Shown: in pieces, positions 48,783-60,367 of the stretch
Layout: each line of letters opens with the position of its first letter
How positions within the stretch are numbered: position 1 is the first letter of the stretch
Assembly: GCA_009887095.1 (NCBI GenBank)
Contig: QXYC01000023.1
Location: forward strand, 1-64,000
Length of the DNA: 64,000 nt
Origin: Candidatus Poseidoniales archaeon
GTDB lineage: Archaea > Thermoplasmatota > Poseidoniia > Poseidoniales > Poseidoniaceae
Reading direction: 5' to 3'
The notes under the pieces: generated by a model
Databases searched by the model: none
Seen by the model: the letters and a program-made list of their open reading frames with translations, nothing else
Told to the model about the DNA's origin: nothing
Position numbers and translations under genes: made by a program

Positions 48783-48828
48783 ACTACATGGTGTCGGGAA
48801 ACTTGCACAGATGTGCGTGGTGTTCTTT

Positions 48829-51800
48829 ATGTCGCTAAATCACAACCAAATGGCCTATGCCGCTATTGTTTCTACGCTCATATTTGGGTCCATCTTTGTC
48901 GGTCTATCCGGGTACTTCCAAACCAGTGAAGGCCTTGGAGGCTACGAAAGCGCCGCTGAAGACGATTTGATTGGAAGCGGTACCTCGTTGGGAATCGCAA
49001 CCGATACTGACGGCGATGGGCTTTCTGACGTGTTGGAAAACACACAATACGGTACAGATCCCGAGGATCCAGATACCGATAAAGATGGAATGAGCGATGG
49101 TTGGGAAGTCGATCATGGGCTCAATCCACTTGATAACGGTGAATCTGAAGATTTGCTTCAGGACCCCGGCGAAGCCGATACGGATGACGCCAACATTGCA
49201 AACGAAACCGACTCATGGCCTGACCCAAGTCAGGGGCCAAACGGTGACCCTGACCGAGACGGCCTGATCAACAAGATTGAGGAAGAACTCGGAACGGACC
49301 CACAACGAAGTGACACCGACAATGACGGGCTCAACGACCGATGGGAATCTCTCTACACCATGACGGTGCAAACCCCTGGTGGCGATGTTACATTGTTTGA
49401 CCCACTCAACGGGAACTGGGATTGCCTCCTGCTCGACCAAGCAATGGAAGACACCCTCTCCACTCGATTCAACGGTGAAGGCGATGCAGCAGATTGGGAT
49501 GACCTAGCAAATTCAATCGGTGCTCACTCTTGCGACATGGTCCTCGATACTGACGATGACGGACTCGCAAATTTCGAAGAGGAAGCGTTTGGCACAAACC
49601 CAACCGCCCGTGACTCCGATATGGATCTCATCGACGACATCGTGGAAGTCTCCAACATGTCGGTGAACCTCTTTGTCGGCGTTGGAGAAAACTGCAACAT
49701 TCCACTCCTTGAATCAATCAACCGTGCTGCTCCGTTCCAAGACCAAGAGCGTTCTTGGTTCATGATGGACATGGATGGTGATGGATTGCTCAACGGACCA
49801 TCGGACTGGGACACAGACGGTGACGGCATGCCCGACGGTTTCGAATTCTGCTATTCGAACGTACTCGATGAGCCAGATAACAACGCACTCGAAACCCTCA
49901 ACCCATCAAACGCATCCGATGGATACGGCGACTGGGATGAAGATGGCATGAACAACTACGAAGAGTACCAAGTTGCGAACCTCTTCGGACCAACCAACTT
50001 CACTTCGCCATGGCGCATGGACACCGATCTTGACGGAATGCCTGATGGTTGGGAGTCCTCGAACGGCCTCCATCCTCGTGATGGTGCAAACGGTGACCTT
50101 GACCCTGACCATGACGGATGGGACGCTGATGGTGACGGTGGTGTTCGATATGAGACCCTCGAATACGCAGCAGTCGTGATTGGCATCGATGTCATAGAAG
50201 ATCAATGGGTGGAAGCAAACAGCACAGTTGCACGAGCACAAATCACCCTTGCAGGTGGTAACAAGCAAACCATTCCTATGATTGCCCCAGTATCTGGCTA
50301 CGTGTATGAAATCCACGTGTCCCTTGGAATGGCTGTCGAATCCCGTTTGTTCACTTGGATGGAAATTGTCGAACCTGAAGAACAATTCACCAACTTGATG
50401 GAATACAATGCTCGAGATCGTGACGGTGACGGAATCATCGATGGACGCTCGACTGATCCTCTCAATCCAGACACCGATGGTGATGGTTTGATTGACGGCA
50501 TTGAAGTCATGGGCTGGGAAATTCTCGTTGTTAACAATGGAGTCATTCGCACATGGGTCACATCTGACCCTGGTCTCTTCGACACGGATGAAGACGGATT
50601 GTCTGACTACAACGAGTTTGCCACCGTCTGCACAGGTGGATCGAATGCTTCCAACCCTGATACCGACGGCGATGGACTTGGCGACCAAACTGAAGCCCTC
50701 GCTGGCTTCTCTTGGGAAGGTGTTGCGTACTTCACCAGCCCTTGTATGTTCGACACTGACAATGATGGACTCGAAGATGGTGAAGAAGTGATTGCAGGCA
50801 AGGATAACTTCCTTACTCACGCTAACAACTCTGACACAGACAACGACAGCCTCATTGACGGCAATGAAGTTCTCTTTGTTCCACGACCCTTCCAAAACCC
50901 CACCAACCCTCTGATCAACGACACCGATGCAGACGGAATGCTCGATGGATGGGAGATGCAGGTGAAATCCACTGAAGAAAACACCAATTCTCACAGCCTC
51001 TGGGTGGCCACCTCGTCGTGGGAACGCCCTGGCTGCGTGCCATCCCAAAATAATGAATGCACAATGGAAGCAGGCGGCTATGTCTGGCAAAACAACCTTG
51101 GTGGATTCGTTATTGAACCAATGTTCCAAGTCTCAGAGATGAACCTCACAGGTTTCGCCATGCCGGAGAATCCATTCTGTGAATGCAATGGCCGCTGGGC
51201 ACTGGATCCATCGCTTGACTCGCTCAAAGATGACACGTACGACATCGATAACGATTCCCTGGCAAACGGCGCAGAAGCACCTGACAAGTGGAACACAAAC
51301 CCAGTTGATGACGACACAGACGGTGATAAACTCCCTGATGGCTGGGAAGTCTACTACTCCGGGCTCGCACTGGAAGCTGGCATCGTGGACAATGCATCAA
51401 TCAACGCATACGGCGCTCGTGGTGTTCTTGATCCATCAATGCCCGACAGCGACCTCGACGGAATCGACGACGGATTGGAAGACCCTGACAACGATGGATT
51501 GAACCGTACCGGTTTGGTCAAGAAGTACTGCCCCGGTTACAATGATACAACGAACTCTGAATGTAACATTGACCCGGATTCACCAGACGGCAAGCGATTC
51601 TATGATAACCTCGAAAATTACACAAACTTCGAGGAATTCGAGAATGGCACCAACCCAATCTCAAACGACACAGATGGTGATGACTGGAACGATGGCCCCG
51701 AAGTTTACTACCAAGACCACGATCAAGACGGTATGGCCACTGGCTGGGAGTTCCACTTCAAGTTCGATCCGTTTGACGGTGCAGACCGTATGGTTGACCA

Positions 51801-51909
51801 AGACGGCGATGGGCACGTGAACTACTGTGAATACAAGTGGGACACAAACCCGAGAGATCCCACAAGTTTCCCAGGACAAGGTGAATTGTGCGATCCATTC
51901 GCCCAATGA
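48829..51909 (+). CDS. exported calcium-binding protein with ~24 DxDxDG (thrombospondin type 3-like) repeats
   Basis: The 1026-residue protein has one N-terminal hydrophobic segment (AAIVSTLIFGSIFVGLSGYF) that serves as signal peptide or anchor. The rest is dominated by about two dozen acidic repeats such as DTDGDGLSDVLE, DTDKDGMSDGWE, DTDNDGLNDRWE and DTDADGMLDGWE. Each is a likely calcium loop followed by a short helix, as in thrombospondin type 3/EF-hand-like surface proteins. Beta-rich spacers separate them (for example around residues 450-520). There is no C-terminal membrane helix. Its role is probably structural or adhesive at the cell surface. An ATG at 48811 could also be the start. 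It has its own TATA box; another surface-protein gene follows. Confidence 0.87.
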   Translation: MSLNHNQMAYAAIVSTLIFGSIFVGLSGYFQTSEGLGGYESAAEDDLIGSGTSLGIATDTDGDGLSDVLENTQYGTDPEDPDTDKDGMSDGWEVDHGLNPLDNGESEDLLQDPGEADTDDANIANETDSWPDPSQGPNGDPDRDGLINKIEEELGTDPQRSDTDNDGLNDRWESLYTMTVQTPGGDVTLFDPLNGNWDCLLLDQAMEDTLSTRFNGEGDAADWDDLANSIGAHSCDMVLDTDDDGLANFEEEAFGTNPTARDSDMDLIDDIVEVSNMSVNLFVGVGENCNIPLLESINRAAPFQDQERSWFMMDMDGDGLLNGPSDWDTDGDGMPDGFEFCYSNVLDEPDNNALETLNPSNASDGYGDWDEDGMNNYEEYQVANLFGPTNFTSPWRMDTDLDGMPDGWESSNGLHPRDGANGDLDPDHDGWDADGDGGVRYETLEYAAVVIGIDVIEDQWVEANSTVARAQITLAGGNKQTIPMIAPVSGYVYEIHVSLGMAVESRLFTWMEIVEPEEQFTNLMEYNARDRDGDGIIDGRSTDPLNPDTDGDGLIDGIEVMGWEILVVNNGVIRTWVTSDPGLFDTDEDGLSDYNEFATVCTGGSNASNPDTDGDGLGDQTEALAGFSWEGVAYFTSPCMFDTDNDGLEDGEEVIAGKDNFLTHANNSDTDNDSLIDGNEVLFVPRPFQNPTNPLINDTDADGMLDGWEMQVKSTEENTNSHSLWVATSSWERPGCVPSQNNECTMEAGGYVWQNNLGGFVIEPMFQVSEMNLTGFAMPENPFCECNGRWALDPSLDSLKDDTYDIDNDSLANGAEAPDKWNTNPVDDDTDGDKLPDGWEVYYSGLALEAGIVDNASINAYGARGVLDPSMPDSDLDGIDDGLEDPDNDGLNRTGLVKKYCPGYNDTTNSECNIDPDSPDGKRFYDNLENYTNFEEFENGTNPISNDTDGDDWNDGPEVYYQDHDQDGMATGWEFHFKFDPFDGADRMVDQDGDGHVNYCEYKWDTNPRDPTSFPGQGELCDPFAQ

Positions 51910-54954: not shown

Positions 54955-56139
54955 ATGAATTGGGAATCGATTTTGCATCAACAGGCCGGCTGGACCACTG
55001 AAACGGCTCAAGAACTCCGTCTTTCACCAGAAGATGCATTGACATTGTACAATGATGCGCCACTTCACCAATTGATGTCGGCTGCCCACAATCGGCGCAT
55101 CGCTATGCACGGTCCATCGAAGGTCACCTATCTCGTGGATCGAAACATCAATTACACCAATGTCTGTACCATTAACTGTCAATTCTGTTCATTCTACCGA
55201 CCACCTGGCCATGATGAGACATACACGCAATCGCTGGAAGAGATTTCCGGACGAATCTCGGCGCTGGAAGAGATTGGAGGCGTCCGCATTCTCATGCAGG
55301 GCGGTGTCAATCCCGAACTCCCCTTCGAATGGTACGAAACATTGCTTTCTCACATTCGGACCAACCATCCAAGCATCGCAATCGATTGTTTTAGCCCGAT
55401 TGAAATTGAAGGCATTGCTGAAGTGAGCGAACTCACGACCCTTGAAGTTCTCACTCGTCTCAAAGCTTCTGGAATGCATGGCCTTCCTGGTGGTGGGGCA
55501 GAGATGCTTGTTGATGATGTGCGAAAGGACGTTTCTCCGAAAAAAGGTCTCCCTGCGAATTGGCTACGTGTGATGGAAGAGGCACAAAGTTTGCAGCTCA
55601 CAACAAGTGCAACAAATGTCATCGGGTTTGGCGAAACAAATGAACAGCGTATCGAACATATGCGGAGGCTCCGATCTTTGCAAGATGCGTCGCTTGAAGA
55701 TCATGGAATCGGTTTCACATCGTTCATTGCTTGGCCAGTGCAACTCGAGACCAACAGCTTTGGCCGTAGAAACCGAGGCAAAAACAAGGTGCTTCTTGGG
55801 GCCGGTTCTTCAGAATACCTACGCCATGTGGCTGTTTCTCGCCTGTTCCTTGACTCGATTCCAAACATCCAATCCTCGTGGCCAACAATGGGCATTAAGA
55901 CAGCGCAGATGGCGCTCTTTGGTGGAGCAAATGATGTCGGTTCCACCATGATGGAAGAAAATGTTGTGTCTGCATCTGGAACGACCAAATTTAGTGCCAG
56001 CGAGGTTGAACTTCAGCATGTCATACACAGAGCGGGCTTCGTACCACAGCGCCGAGACAGTGATTATGTCTTCCTCGAAACGCCGATTATTGATGCGAAC
56101 CACGCCGATCTCCCTGCTCCGGTGCCGGCACAATCGTGA
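54955..56139 (+). CDS. mqnC: cyclic dehypoxanthinyl futalosine synthase (radical SAM, MqnC)
   Basis: The 394-residue radical SAM enzyme closes the ring of dehypoxanthine futalosine in the futalosine route to menaquinone. The cluster-binding CTINCQFC (Cys71, 75, 78) lies in the family signature NINYTNV...FYRPPGHDETY. LMQGGVNPELPFEWYE, MHGLPGGGAEMLVDDVRKDVSP, SFIAWPVQLETNS, and FGGANDVGSTMMEENVVSASG near residue 325 are also typical of MqnC. The related CofH and MqnE are less likely because of the RPPGH motif. No other mqn gene is in the window. GAGGCGAGCGT lies before the ATG. Menaquinone would be the acceptor for the proline dehydrogenase. Confidence 0.88.
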   Translation: MNWESILHQQAGWTTETAQELRLSPEDALTLYNDAPLHQLMSAAHNRRIAMHGPSKVTYLVDRNINYTNVCTINCQFCSFYRPPGHDETYTQSLEEISGRISALEEIGGVRILMQGGVNPELPFEWYETLLSHIRTNHPSIAIDCFSPIEIEGIAEVSELTTLEVLTRLKASGMHGLPGGGAEMLVDDVRKDVSPKKGLPANWLRVMEEAQSLQLTTSATNVIGFGETNEQRIEHMRRLRSLQDASLEDHGIGFTSFIAWPVQLETNSFGRRNRGKNKVLLGAGSSEYLRHVAVSRLFLDSIPNIQSSWPTMGIKTAQMALFGGANDVGSTMMEENVVSASGTTKFSASEVELQHVIHRAGFVPQRRDSDYVFLETPIIDANHADLPAPVPAQS

Positions 56140-56145
56140 ACACAA

Positions 56146-59100
56146 TCAGGCCGTCGTGTTGTAGAACACAACCCAAATTTCAGCGTGAATGTTTCGTTGC
56201 CCGTTTCCAATTCCGTCAGATGGTACGTATTCTTGACCATTGAACAGACCTTGGTAGGTGAGGTGATTGTTTCCACCAGTGGAGTCTGTCCATGAAGTGA
56301 TGTCGTAGGTCCATTGCTTGACATCTTGACCAGCGCACCAACCGGCACGTCCGTATGGCCACGAACCGAATTGGTTGGCGACGACTCCATTGGAGACTTC
56401 ATTTTCACATCCTTCATTCGAGTACACAATTGGGTGCCACTCGTATGTCGAGAATCCATTCATTTCGTAGTGGTGTTCATGGTCACAAAATTCTGCACAA
56501 TTGGCATTGTCTTTCCCAAAACCATGCCCCGTGATGGTTGCAACAATCTCTACTTTGGAAGCCCAAGATGGTACAGTGAAATTGAGATGACGGTTGTATC
56601 TTGACTCATTGTTGTACGTTCCATCAAATTGCCCGCCAGTAAATGCAAAGACCGCTTCTTCAGCGTGTTCACCAGAACCCCAATCGCTCAACAAGAGGGT
56701 GATCGTCAAATCACCTTTGTTTGCACCTCGATACTTGAAGGTGCGATTGTCTTCATCCTCCAGCATGAAAAGGTAGGGCGAAATGTCAGTTAGCCACTTT
56801 CCTTCCCTGCCATAGGTCGTAATCCAACGCATGAACTCTGTGCCACACGAAGAGTCATTGTCTCGGTCACAGATTCGTAGGTTTGCTTCGTAATCCCATT
56901 CATGGCAACCACCGTACGATCCATCTGACTTTTGGAATCGGTTGGCACGATCCTCGCAGGCATGTTCATGGTAGACCTCGAGGGTATCGTATTGAGTCAT
57001 ATTTGATGGGAACTCAGCACTTTGGGTTGAGGTGAAACCACCGCCCCATCCCCCTGCGTGACGCTCAAAATCCCATAGAGAGACTTCGTGTACCGCCTCA
57101 TCACTTCGACGGATCTCTACAGGGAATTCTGCGTTCCACTGGTGAGGCTCATGGATGAGGTGCATCGCATCGTTGGACTGTGAGGTCCAAGCATACAATG
57201 AGCCAGTTTCTCTGGCTTGTTGGAATCGATCAATACCCATGTAACGTGGGTTGTTGAAACTTGAGACCATATCACCGATGCCGCCTGATAGCGTGCCGGC
57301 TCGTTGGTCGATGTAGTGAATGCGATCTGCCCATCGAGTCTCTTCATTCGGGTTGAGTGCGTTCTCCACTGCAGATTTCCTTTCGAGGACATCGTTGTGA
57401 TATGTGCTGTCAAATGAACCATAGAACAAATGCACATTCTCCGGCAACGCTCTGATGAAAGGCCCAGGACTTTGGCCCCATGTTCCTGCATTGGAGTTCC
57501 CTGAGCTGTCTGTGTACTTGAAGACAAAGAAATAGATGTCGAAGCCAGTCCATTCTTGTTGGAAGTAAAACGTTCCACCAAGCGTTGGCATCGAGAAATG
57601 CGGGACTGTTTGCATGGGACCGTTCAGGCTGGAAGCACTCTTCCACGGTACGGGCGATTGAACGACGGCGCATCCTTCTGAATCGATGGTCCATTTCACA
57701 GGCGAATCTGGACAAAGGTCGTTATTGGCTGACACCCCATCTGAATCAATGTCAGCACAGCCGACCTCGTTGACTGCAAGTCCTACGGGCGTTCCCTCAC
57801 ACACATCCACGGCGTCGTTAACGCCATCTTGGTCACCGTCGCGCTGTTCTGCAGCGCAGCCAAATTGGTCAATGTCAGTACCATTTGCTGGTGTTTGTGG
57901 ACAGCGATCGAGTGCGTCGCCTGTAGCGTTTACATCGTTGACTCCATCATTGTCATCATCCTCATCTTCGGTAGCATCAGCGCACCCATCATCATCGAAA
58001 TCAGACTGAGTGGTCCGAATCCAGGAGGTGAACCCCTTTGGGCAAAGGTCATCAGCATCGAGGGCCCCGTCATTGTCATCGTCATCGTCCTCATCCAAAT
58101 CTAAACAACCATCGCCGTCCCAGTCAGTGTAGAGTGTTGATCCCCAACCGACCCTTCCGTAGGGGCAATCATCGTCAATGTCGAGGACATCATCGTTGTC
58201 ATCATCTTCGTCGCTATCTGTATCGTGGCAACCATCTGAGTCGAAATCAGCATCTGGCGTAGAAATCCATCCTAAGGAATCGGGGCAGCGGTCATGCAAG
58301 TCAAGCACCCCATCGTTGTCATCGTCGTCATCCTCGTCGTTATCTCGACAGCCGTCATCATCTTTGTCGCTGTTTGCGTTGGATTTCCAACCCTCCGCCT
58401 CACCGATCCCATTTGGGCATCGATCCTTTGAATCTTGTATGCTGTCTCCATCTGCATCTGCGCCGCCTCCTTCCAGAATAACCAATGTCCCTGTGGTATC
58501 AGAAAGGGGTTCAAATTGTCCACATGTTGCCGATGTCGTGATGGTCATCGTGCTTTCAATTTCGGTAAAATCAAGGAGAACCTTCCAAGTTCCGTCAGAT
58601 TTTACAACAATACTACCGGATGAGCCATCTGAAATGGAGTACTCCATGGTGCATGTTTCGATGCCTTCGTGCGATAAGGTTCCCTCAAACCAAAGGAGGT
58701 TAGGTTCCTCCAGAACCTCACGAACAGGTGCAGTAAGCACAGGTGCCAATTCTTCTGGCGGTAGTACTTCGATTGTATGGGTGATCGTTGCCACTGTCGG
58801 TGCGATTGAATCTGCGTCAGTCGGTTCGATGGCGACATTCACAGTGTAATTTCCAAGCATTGCTGGTAGGAATTCAAGCGCATATCCGGTCGTGGTTATT
58901 GACCACCCATAGGCGTTGACTTGCTTGAATTCTGGTGTGGTGATCGAAGGAGTGAGTGCCCAGCCTTCGCCTTGATAGGCCACTTGCAGCACGATTGGTG
59001 TTCCATCGAGGCGAATGGTTTCGACCGGCGATTGCCAATCAAACGTGGGTGTTTCGAGCGATACAGGCTCTCCAATTTCATTTTCCACTTCTGGCTCAAC

Positions 59101-59169
59101 CGCGCCTAAGCACCCTGCAAAACCAAGCAACGCGACGAGAAGGATGGCTGGAAACACACCTTGTTTCAT
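56146..59169 (-). CDS. lipoprotein with calcium-binding repeats and PNGase F-like domain
   Basis: The 1007-residue protein has a lipoprotein signal with lipobox LLGFAGC (Cys20). A beta region (~40-230) comes next, then about eight acidic thrombospondin type 3-like repeats (~236-500, such as DDDDDNDGVLDLHDRCP). The C-terminal ~500 residues resemble peptide-N-glycosidase F. The first lobe has GGCHEWDYEANL (residues 753-764) and ITTYGREGKWLTDISPYL. The second lobe has ITGHGFG (879-885), CAEFC (891-895) and NQFGSWPYGRAGWCAG (932-947), the family's glycanase C-terminal pattern. Asp759 and Glu893 sit where catalytic acids would be expected. Predicted role: removing N-glycans from extracellular glycoproteins while tethered to the cell. 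It converges on mqnC. Confidence 0.82.
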   Translation of the reverse strand: MKQGVFPAILLVALLGFAGCLGAVEPEVENEIGEPVSLETPTFDWQSPVETIRLDGTPIVLQVAYQGEGWALTPSITTPEFKQVNAYGWSITTTGYALEFLPAMLGNYTVNVAIEPTDADSIAPTVATITHTIEVLPPEELAPVLTAPVREVLEEPNLLWFEGTLSHEGIETCTMEYSISDGSSGSIVVKSDGTWKVLLDFTEIESTMTITTSATCGQFEPLSDTTGTLVILEGGGADADGDSIQDSKDRCPNGIGEAEGWKSNANSDKDDDGCRDNDEDDDDDNDGVLDLHDRCPDSLGWISTPDADFDSDGCHDTDSDEDDDNDDVLDIDDDCPYGRVGWGSTLYTDWDGDGCLDLDEDDDDDNDGALDADDLCPKGFTSWIRTTQSDFDDDGCADATEDEDDDNDGVNDVNATGDALDRCPQTPANGTDIDQFGCAAEQRDGDQDGVNDAVDVCEGTPVGLAVNEVGCADIDSDGVSANNDLCPDSPVKWTIDSEGCAVVQSPVPWKSASSLNGPMQTVPHFSMPTLGGTFYFQQEWTGFDIYFFVFKYTDSSGNSNAGTWGQSPGPFIRALPENVHLFYGSFDSTYHNDVLERKSAVENALNPNEETRWADRIHYIDQRAGTLSGGIGDMVSSFNNPRYMGIDRFQQARETGSLYAWTSQSNDAMHLIHEPHQWNAEFPVEIRRSDEAVHEVSLWDFERHAGGWGGGFTSTQSAEFPSNMTQYDTLEVYHEHACEDRANRFQKSDGSYGGCHEWDYEANLRICDRDNDSSCGTEFMRWITTYGREGKWLTDISPYLFMLEDEDNRTFKYRGANKGDLTITLLLSDWGSGEHAEEAVFAFTGGQFDGTYNNESRYNRHLNFTVPSWASKVEIVATITGHGFGKDNANCAEFCDHEHHYEMNGFSTYEWHPIVYSNEGCENEVSNGVVANQFGSWPYGRAGWCAGQDVKQWTYDITSWTDSTGGNNHLTYQGLFNGQEYVPSDGIGNGQRNIHAEIWVVFYNTTA

Positions 59170-59208: not shown

Positions 59209-60357
59209 TCAGAGTTGATTTGATTCAGTCCGACCATCGTTTGTCGGCAATGCGAAAATCTTTGCTGGTTCGGTCGGATGGGCCACCGTTACAGGTTGAA
59301 CGTACATGAGCGAACCGCCCTTTTTCCGCTCGATTCTGATAATAATTTCCCAGTGAATGCGAATGAGGGAGGTGGAAACCGTGCCCGGCCATTGATTTGG
59401 AGGGGATTCCAATTCCATCGTTTCGGTTACCCAAGGCTTGCGGCCGCCAAAATCCATGACCCGCATTGGTCGCAAAAAGAGGCCACCCTTCACCTCATGA
59501 TGTTCCATCGGTGATTCTTCACCACCTCCTGTCCCATCATCCAGCCCGATTTCCCAATGGTGAGGAAGGGAGGTGGTGAGGCCTGGTGGGGGCTGTGATG
59601 CTGTCGATCGTCCCAAGGCAGCGAAGACTTCTTCTCTGGCAGGAGATAATATGCCGACACGCCACATCACCTCGATAGCCTTCCAGTTTTCTGGACGTTC
59701 TTTGATGTCTACATTTACTTGAAGAGGTTGTCCTGCAGTTGGCACCCCTTCAAAATAAATGACCGGGTCTGTGGGAGCTGAATTGAGAAATTTTCGTTGC
59801 GATACCAAATCTACAAAATTTGCCGCCACGCGAAAGAGGAGTGGTGCAAAAAGCAGCGGAACTACGACAATGGCAAGGGTCGGGTAATCGAGCAACCCAA
59901 TTCGAACGGTGCCTGTTCCGACGCTAGGTACCCCCATCGAACTCAAAACGGGTTCGATGAACAAATAGGCCAAGGATAGTAAGAGCACGACGACTGAAAA
60001 CGACATAAATTGACGAACCGCTTTGTGGACAGGATTTGGTGTCAAGTACCAACCTTGCCGGTGACGCTTGACAATTCTTGGAATTTCCCTGTCCTCAACG
60101 TATTCGTTCGTTCGCTTAATGTTCGAGTCATCAAAGACCTCATTCTCGAAGATGTAGCGTTGTTCAACCAACCAGTTGTTTTCCGTTCCGAGTTGGAAAC
60201 TCGGTGGTTGTTTGGAAAGATAGTCCACGACATCCGACGGCTCCACATTTGCGGCGATTTCAGTAATAGATGTGGCAATTGGCAGGGTTTCAGGGGCGAA
60301 CCTACCGGGCTCAAACGGAGGGTATCGCACACGTTGCTCGAGTTTGATTTGTCCCAT
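59209..60357 (-). CDS. membrane protein of unknown function
   Basis: The 382-residue protein has a soluble N-terminal ~115 residues. Two membrane helices follow (FMSFSVVVLLLSLAYLFI and TLAIVVVPLLFAPLLFRV, about 120-180). A C-terminal beta-rich domain (~190-380) contains VIYFEGVPTAGQPLQVNVDI, much like an arrestin or Ig-type fold. I do not recognise it. ATG 60357 follows AGAGGGTTGCTG; an upstream TTG is not needed. It lies 10 bases after the geranylgeranyl reductase stop and is likely the last gene of the topB-GGR unit. Confidence 0.7.
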   Translation of the reverse strand: MGQIKLEQRVRYPPFEPGRFAPETLPIATSITEIAANVEPSDVVDYLSKQPPSFQLGTENNWLVEQRYIFENEVFDDSNIKRTNEYVEDREIPRIVKRHRQGWYLTPNPVHKAVRQFMSFSVVVLLLSLAYLFIEPVLSSMGVPSVGTGTVRIGLLDYPTLAIVVVPLLFAPLLFRVAANFVDLVSQRKFLNSAPTDPVIYFEGVPTAGQPLQVNVDIKERPENWKAIEVMWRVGILSPAREEVFAALGRSTASQPPPGLTTSLPHHWEIGLDDGTGGGEESPMEHHEVKGGLFLRPMRVMDFGGRKPWVTETMELESPPNQWPGTVSTSLIRIHWEIIIRIERKKGGSLMYVQPVTVAHPTEPAKIFALPTNDGRTESNQL

Positions 60358-60367
60358 CAGCAACCCT

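What the first reader, a model, noticed from the sequence alone, without database searches (positions are those of the whole stretch)
56146..59169. PNGase F-like deglycosylase fused to calcium-binding repeats on an archaeal lipoprotein
The C-terminal half shows the glycanase patterns EWDY, GHGFG...CAEFC and NQFGSWPYGRAGWC. The N-terminal half is a lipobox plus about eight DxDxDG-type repeats that could hold the enzyme away from the membrane. This would let the cell strip N-glycans from dissolved or particle glycoprotein before proteolysis by the two surface subtilases in the same window.
Basis: partly seen in the sequence, partly recalled or inferred. Interest (0 to 1): 0.65.

Follow-up and report, generated by a model that had tools for sequence, protein, structure and literature searches.

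The report
Surface glycan-stripping enzyme in marine archaea
Abundant surface-ocean archaea carry a membrane-anchored protein whose business end is a close relative of the enzymes (PNGase F, fish Ngly2) that cut sugar chains off proteins, held out on a calcium-binding stalk, which suggests that these cells strip sugars from seawater or particle glycoproteins.

Summary
ORF 56146-59169 (minus strand, 1007 aa) of a Ca. [quoted passage not shown] PF09113 hits at 2.8e-19. The nearest solved structure is not PNGase F but zebrafish Ngly2, the fish acid PNGase (sequence E 2.5e-41; AF2/Foldseek E 1.8e-30 over Tx-like plus PNGase). D759 and E893, matching Ngly2's two mutationally proven catalytic residues, are invariant in all 104 sequences aligned. 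The gene occurs in 152/293 genomes of the order, at one syntenic site, under strong purifying selection (dN/dS about 0.03). In genomes without it the flanking genes face each other directly; one keeps a stalk-only remnant. Among about 65 bacterial relatives examined (mostly Myxococcota) the Tx-PNGase core is general, but none has the stalk; a PA domain was found only in Ngly2, Deinococcus and Chloroflexota. Best reading: a surface-tethered glycoamidase that de-N-glycosylates external protein before proteolysis. Activity, pH range, substrate and role are untested. New variant of a known kind; I found no archaeal member described.

The parts
56146..59169 (-). whole gene: 1007-aa surface lipoprotein, Ig-Ig-TSP3 stalk-Tx-like-PNGase
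59110..59169 (-). lipoprotein signal peptide with lipobox FAG-C20
   Evidence: lipobox recurs in Poseidoniales homologues and in the Deinococcus homologue
58762..59043 (-). first Ig-like beta-sandwich (aa ~43-136)
   Evidence: AF2 model; Foldseek to titin Z1Z2
58474..58740 (-). second Ig-like beta-sandwich (aa ~144-232)
57670..58461 (-). TSP3 calcium-binding stalk, nine DxDx[DN]G motifs with conserved Cys (aa ~237-500)
57202..57603 (-). thioredoxin-like domain without CXXC and without the PA insertion (aa ~523-656)
   Evidence: (Ngly2 and DsbE-type hits)
57109..57168 (-). linker helix between Tx-like and PNGase domains (aa 668-687)
   Evidence: AF2 model; Ngly2 has an equivalent helix (PMC12753239)
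56155..57090 (-). PNGase domain, PNGase F fold (aa ~694-1005)
56893..56895 (-). catalytic Asp759 (Ngly2 D421; PNGase F D60)
   Evidence: invariant in 104 of 104 sequences
56491..56493 (-). catalytic Glu893 (Ngly2 E555; PNGase F E206)
   Evidence: invariant in 104 of 104 sequences
54955..56139 (+). convergent CofH-type radical SAM gene, fixed syntenic neighbour (not part of the enzyme)
59209..60363 (-). 384-aa protein with no Pfam match, fixed syntenic neighbour upstream on the same strand, 39 bp away (not part of the enzyme)

Best explanation
It is a cell-surface peptide:N-glycosidase of the PNGase F / Ngly2 superfamily. The lipobox Cys anchors it in the membrane; two Ig-like domains and a calcium-stiffened TSP3 rod hold the catalytic part outward; the non-redox thioredoxin-like domain packs next to the PNGase domain and may dimerise it, as in Ngly2. 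Asp759 and Glu893 in the cleft hydrolyse the GlcNAc-Asn bond of N-glycoproteins, leaving Asp, so that peptide chains become open to the cell's own surface proteases and peptide importers. Shown here: homology, fold, invariant catalytic pair, architecture, lipobox, purifying selection, fixed locus. Inferred from relatives: glycoamidase chemistry. Inference only: seawater or particle substrate and nutritional role.
For: PF09113 2.8e-19; Ngly2 2.5e-41 and PNGase F 1.8e-5 by sequence, 4e-73 and about 2e-15 by profile. AF2 model pLDDT 82, pTM 0.76 matches Ngly2 at E 1.8e-30, TM 0.75 by query, 652 columns, and PNGase F at E 8e-15. W758, D759, E893, W937, R941, W944 and five Cys are invariant in the 104 aligned sequences, save one unread residue. 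In Ngly2, D421A and E555A abolish activity (PMC12753239). dN/dS 0.03. Present in 152/293 genomes of the order at one syntenic place. Lipoboxes recur. Five genomes of the genus lack GH92, GH20 and GH38, which fits use of the peptide rather than the glycan; a proteolytic lifestyle is inferred for the order in PMC6461757.
Against: No activity data for any archaeal or Myxococcota member. Ngly2 is nearly inactive above pH 6 and its GHG histidine (H546) is kept here (H882), so activity at seawater pH is not assured; its other active-site histidine, H422, is Tyr760 here. Ngly2 W480, needed for near-normal activity, lies in a loop (aa 812-823) that carries no W/Y in 29 of 37 archaeal rows, although the loop also varies among bacteria. 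PNGase F E118, catalytic there by my own knowledge, has no counterpart here or in Ngly2. Not linked to a protease gene. The cell has its own oligosaccharyltransferase (STT3/AglB), so an indiscriminate enzyme might strip its own surface.
Confidence: 0.78

Rival explanations
1. A glycoamidase with a different target: it trims or recycles the archaeon's own N-glycoproteins (archaellins, surface proteins), or acts on prokaryotic rather than eukaryotic N-glycans.
For: The genomes checked encode STT3/AglB and archaellins, so self substrates probably exist on the same surface. The loop holding Ngly2 W480, which contacts the second GlcNAc and the mannose, is remodelled in Poseidoniales.
Against: Archaellin presence does not track the enzyme in family f2: genera g14 and g21 have archaellins and no PNGase. 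The gene is cleanly absent in many relatives, so it is not needed for housekeeping of surface glycans.
Confidence: 0.12
2. A catalytically weak or dead PNGase-fold protein used as a glycan-binding adhesin on a TSP3 stalk for attachment to particles.
For: TSP3 proteins are plentiful in this genome and have been read as adhesion proteins in Poseidoniales (PMC6461757). A sugar-contact aromatic in the 812-823 loop is missing in most Poseidoniales rows.
Against: Both catalytic acids and the neighbouring cleft residues checked are invariant over sequences down to about 33-40% identity, which binding alone would not require; dN/dS 0.03.
Confidence: 0.08
3. An ordinary free-standing PNGase F taken up recently from bacteria such as Flavobacteriia.
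For: The PNGase F fold and PF09113 are shared.
Against: PNGase F is a very distant branch (4.3 changes per column) and lacks the Tx-like domain; Poseidoniales sequences form one group (SH-aLRT 99) at one conserved locus, with GC3 like the neighbouring genes.
Confidence: 0.02

Closest known systems
Zebrafish Ngly2 (PDB 9lwg; Honda et al. 2025, PMC12753239)
   Same: Non-redox Tx-like domain, linker helix and PNGase domain in the same order; catalytic Asp/Glu; the GHG histidine; most Cys of the PNGase domain; best sequence and fold match.
   Different: Ngly2 has a PA domain inserted in the Tx-like domain, is lysosomal and acid-active, has H422 (Tyr760 here) and W480 (loop remodelled here); no Ig domains or TSP3 stalk.
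PNGase F of Elizabethkingia meningoseptica (PDB 1pnf, 1pgs)
   Same: PNGase F fold, Asp/Glu pair, EWD, CAE[FW]C and RAGWC motifs.
   Different: No Tx-like domain or stalk; neutral to alkaline enzyme; E118, R61 and the Trp in place of the GHG His are not conserved here; 17-18% identity over the structural alignment.
Deinococcus radiodurans WP_010889584.1, PNGase F-related protein
   Same: Lipobox, N-terminal region ahead of a PNGase domain; 37% identity over the PNGase domain.
   Different: Has a PA domain (PF02225, 1.8e-12) and no TSP3 stalk; groups with Chloroflexota proteins.
Myxococcota / Deltaproteobacteria Tx-PNGase proteins (e.g. L079, L093)
   Same: Tx-like plus PNGase core without PA, same cleft residues.
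   Different: No calcium-repeat stalk (0-1 DxDxDG motifs against 8 or more in full-length archaeal proteins).
TSP3 repeats of thrombospondin-2 and COMP
   Same: DxDxDG-type calcium repeats with conserved Cys.
   Different: Here they serve as the stalk of an enzyme on a lipoprotein.

Membership tests
PNGase F superfamily (Pfam PF09112 + PF09113) | PF09113 over its curated cut-off | tested here: met
   69.7 bits against cut-off 25; 55 of 55 aligned homologues match
PNGase F superfamily (Pfam PF09112 + PF09113) | PF09112 over its curated cut-off | tested here: not met
   Not detected in the window protein; one of 55 homologues matches, and the Deinococcus protein does. The region nevertheless aligns to PNGase F by sequence and fold, so the model is probably too narrow
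PNGase F superfamily (Pfam PF09112 + PF09113) | PNGase F double jelly-roll fold | tested here: met
   Foldseek to 1pgs, 1png, 3pms, 1pnf: E 8e-15 to 1.7e-13, TM 0.67-0.69 by target. Strand count per lobe was not measured
PNGase F superfamily (Pfam PF09112 + PF09113) | catalytic Asp and Glu (PNGase F D60, E206) | tested here: met
   D759 and E893, invariant in 104 of 104
PNGase F superfamily (Pfam PF09112 + PF09113) | third acidic residue E118 (own knowledge of PNGase F) | tested here: not met
   No Glu in the loop of the window protein; also absent in the active enzyme Ngly2, so not a defining feature of the superfamily
PNGase F superfamily (Pfam PF09112 + PF09113) | glycoamidase activity | not testable with these tools
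   needs an enzyme assay
Ngly2 (acid PNGase) family | Tx-like domain lacking CXXC fused before the PNGase domain | tested here: met
   Foldseek spans both domains of 9lwg; no CXXC in any of the Tx regions
Ngly2 (acid PNGase) family | PA domain over the active site | tested here: not met
   No PF02225 match and no room for the ~133-aa insertion in the model; the PA domain is found by the same search in Deinococcus and Chloroflexota relatives
Ngly2 (acid PNGase) family | acid-range pH optimum | not testable with these tools
   One of the two Ngly2 active-site histidines is kept (H882), the other is Tyr760
Lipoproteins | signal peptide with lipobox Cys | tested here: met
   FAG-C20, repeated in homologues; lipidation itself not testable
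TSP3 repeat proteins | TSP_3 / TSP3_bac profile match | tested here: inconclusive
   Window protein 14.4 bits, below cut-off; 14 of 22 homologues match with best E 5e-8; stalk profile hits COMP at 1.8e-5

The most novel reading that the evidence does not exclude
An archaeal, surface-displayed N-glycan-removing enzyme: a PA-less Ngly2-type glycoamidase put on a calcium-rod lipoprotein stalk, kept or lost as a one-gene cassette at a fixed chromosomal site across the commonest surface-ocean archaea, with a remodelled sugar-binding loop that suits it to marine glycoproteins at seawater pH.
Probability: 0.45. Interest if true: 0.65.

Novelty: new variant of a known kind. Interest (0 to 1): 0.52.

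Why it matters
PNGase F-type enzymes are described in bacteria and, since 2025, in fish and other aquatic animals; the searches made here found no report of one in archaea. If active, roughly half of the sampled Poseidoniales genomes, members of the most abundant planktonic archaea of surface water, can release N-glycans from glycoprotein at the cell surface. That would add a concrete step to how these proteolytic, uncultured cells open glycosylated organic nitrogen, and a source of free N-glycans in seawater. The family survey also suggests that the thioredoxin-like plus PNGase pair is the general architecture and that the PA domain of fish Ngly2 is a restricted addition, which makes the role of the PA domain directly testable.

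Tried and rejected
Viral or phage carriage: no relative in IMG/VR or phage records; plasmids gave Deinococcus only. Apparent frame break in the one-contig genome G002: it is a run of N, not a mutation. Link with archaella: no clean match by genus. Dedicated N-glycan catabolism: no GH92, GH20 or GH38 in five genomes of the genus. Operon with the subtilases: they lie far away. Loss of a specific aromatic as proof of changed specificity: the 812-823 loop also varies among bacteria and aligns poorly, so it stays a lead. Sister group of the archaeal clade: not resolved (SH-aLRT 69 for all archaea together).

Full report
What is there. The minus-strand ORF 56146-59169 encodes 1007 aa without interruption. 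Pfam finds N-glycanase_C (PF09113) at aa 852-972, E 2.8e-19, well over the curated cut-off. The best sequence match among solved structures is zebrafish Ngly2 (9lwg), E 2.5e-41 over aa 714-989, with PNGase F itself at 1.8e-5. A profile of 55 relatives raises these to 4e-73 and about 2e-15. An AlphaFold2 model of aa 505-1007 (pLDDT 82, pTM 0.76) matches Ngly2 over 652 alignment columns (E 1.8e-30, TM 0.75 by query) and PNGase F (E about 1e-14). The lowest-confidence part of the model is aa 926-947 (model residues 422-443), which includes the GSWPYGRAGWC motif.

Domain order. Lipobox FAG-C20; two Ig-like domains at aa ~43-136 and ~144-232 (model; Foldseek to titin Z1Z2 and other Ig-type folds); a TSP3 stalk at aa ~237-500 with nine DxDx[DN]G motifs, 32% Asp+Glu and regular Cys, whose profile hits COMP and thrombospondin-2; a thioredoxin-like domain at aa ~523-656 followed by a helix and the PNGase domain. 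Ngly2 has the same Tx-like, helix, PNGase order, with a PA domain inserted in the Tx-like part (PMC12753239). That insertion is absent here: there is no Pfam PA match and no room in the model.

Active site. Over 104 sequences (37 archaeal rows including the window, 65 bacterial, Ngly2, PNGase F) Trp758, Asp759, Glu893, Trp937, Arg941, Trp944 and Cys738, 755, 891, 895, 945 do not vary, apart from one unread (X) residue at Cys755 in one assembly. Asp759 and Glu893 correspond to Ngly2 D421 and E555, whose alanine mutants are dead (PMC12753239). The GHG histidine (Ngly2 H546, here H882) is shared by all but PNGase F; Ngly2 H422 is Tyr760 here. The loop with Ngly2 W480 reads YRGANKGD in the window and carries no W/Y in 29 of 37 archaeal rows, but it also varies in bacteria, so a changed glycan preference is only a lead. 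No Tx region carries CXXC.

Distribution and history. 152 of 293 genomes of the order have it, 20 of 35 among the good-quality ones, in 14 of 22 genera; a related 884-898-aa form with TSP3 repeats but apparently without the Ig domains occurs in one other family of the class. Named records place the organism in Ca. Poseidoniales. The gene order (CofH-type gene facing PNGase, then 384-aa protein, FAD reductase, topoisomerase) is kept in both families, with parts missing on short contigs and one rearranged f2 example (L068). In seven genomes without the enzyme, from families f1 and f2 and including the window's own genus, the CofH-type gene and the 384-aa gene still face each other at the same place; in six of them little or nothing lies between. 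In the seventh, G027, a 296-aa ORF sits there with lipobox, one Ig-like stretch and TSP3 motifs but no enzyme, which looks like a deletion footprint. Pairwise dN/dS of the catalytic half is 0.03. The tree holds all Poseidoniales rows together (SH-aLRT 99) and all archaea on one side of a branch only weakly (69).

Bacterial relatives. A scan of 84,980 species genomes gave 356 relatives, of which 80 loci were kept; the bacterial ones are mostly Myxococcota / Deltaproteobacteria, with Chloroflexota, Bdellovibrionota and Kapaibacterium. Nearly all carry the Tx-like domain by HMM, and none of those examined carries the calcium-repeat stalk. PA domains were found by Pfam in Deinococcus and two Chloroflexota proteins, not in two Myxococcota proteins tested. 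The Ngly2 paper mentions bacterial orthologues and does not mention archaea; searches for Poseidoniales or Marine Group II with PNGase or N-glycan terms found nothing. The library holds open-access papers only, so an earlier mention elsewhere cannot be excluded.

How it probably works. The enzyme is tethered outside the membrane and removes N-glycans, leaving Asp in the peptide. The cell has two membrane-bound subtilases in the same window, and Poseidoniales are inferred to live on protein (PMC6461757). No GH92, GH20 or GH38 enzymes for eating the freed glycans were found in five genomes of the genus (three of the five are at least 90% complete). This favours opening up the peptide over eating the sugar, but it is inference. 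The genomes have their own STT3/AglB, so the enzyme must spare its own surface or act on it; the second possibility is the main rival. Ngly2 is nearly inactive above pH 6, so activity at seawater pH is the most important unknown.

Verdict. Observation confirmed; interpretation supported with refinement: an Ngly2-type rather than free-standing PNGase F architecture, with a stalk seen only in the archaeal members. New variant of a known kind, interest about 0.5.

Noticed in passing
G000:C31:33301-38154 (L002-L008): A 1760-aa open frame in the same genome holds many more copies of the same TSP3 repeat (49-59% identical to the stalk); further TSP3 proteins lie on C3, C7, C10 and C12.
   Followed up: no
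48811-51909: 1032-aa protein with bacterial TSP3 repeats and resemblance to gliding motility lipoprotein CglD (NCBIfam 7e-31, below its cut-off); it stays near the PNGase locus in both families.
   Followed up: partly
59209-60363: 384-aa protein with no Pfam or NCBIfam match, kept next to the PNGase site in both families and also where the enzyme is absent.
   Followed up: partly
L066 (G096, family f1) against L068 (G007, family f2): PNGase sequences of two different families are nearly alike (end branches 0.03-0.04), which suggests transfer within the order or a misbinned short contig.
   Followed up: no
L134: A record titled Bifidobacterium breve carries a PNGase that groups with proteobacterial / myxococcal ones; probably a mislabelled or mixed metagenome bin.
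   Followed up: no
L076 (G000:C7:68042-68767): The STT3/AglB match lies in an open frame of 3188 aa, unusually long for an oligosaccharyltransferase (1603 aa in G002).
   Followed up: no
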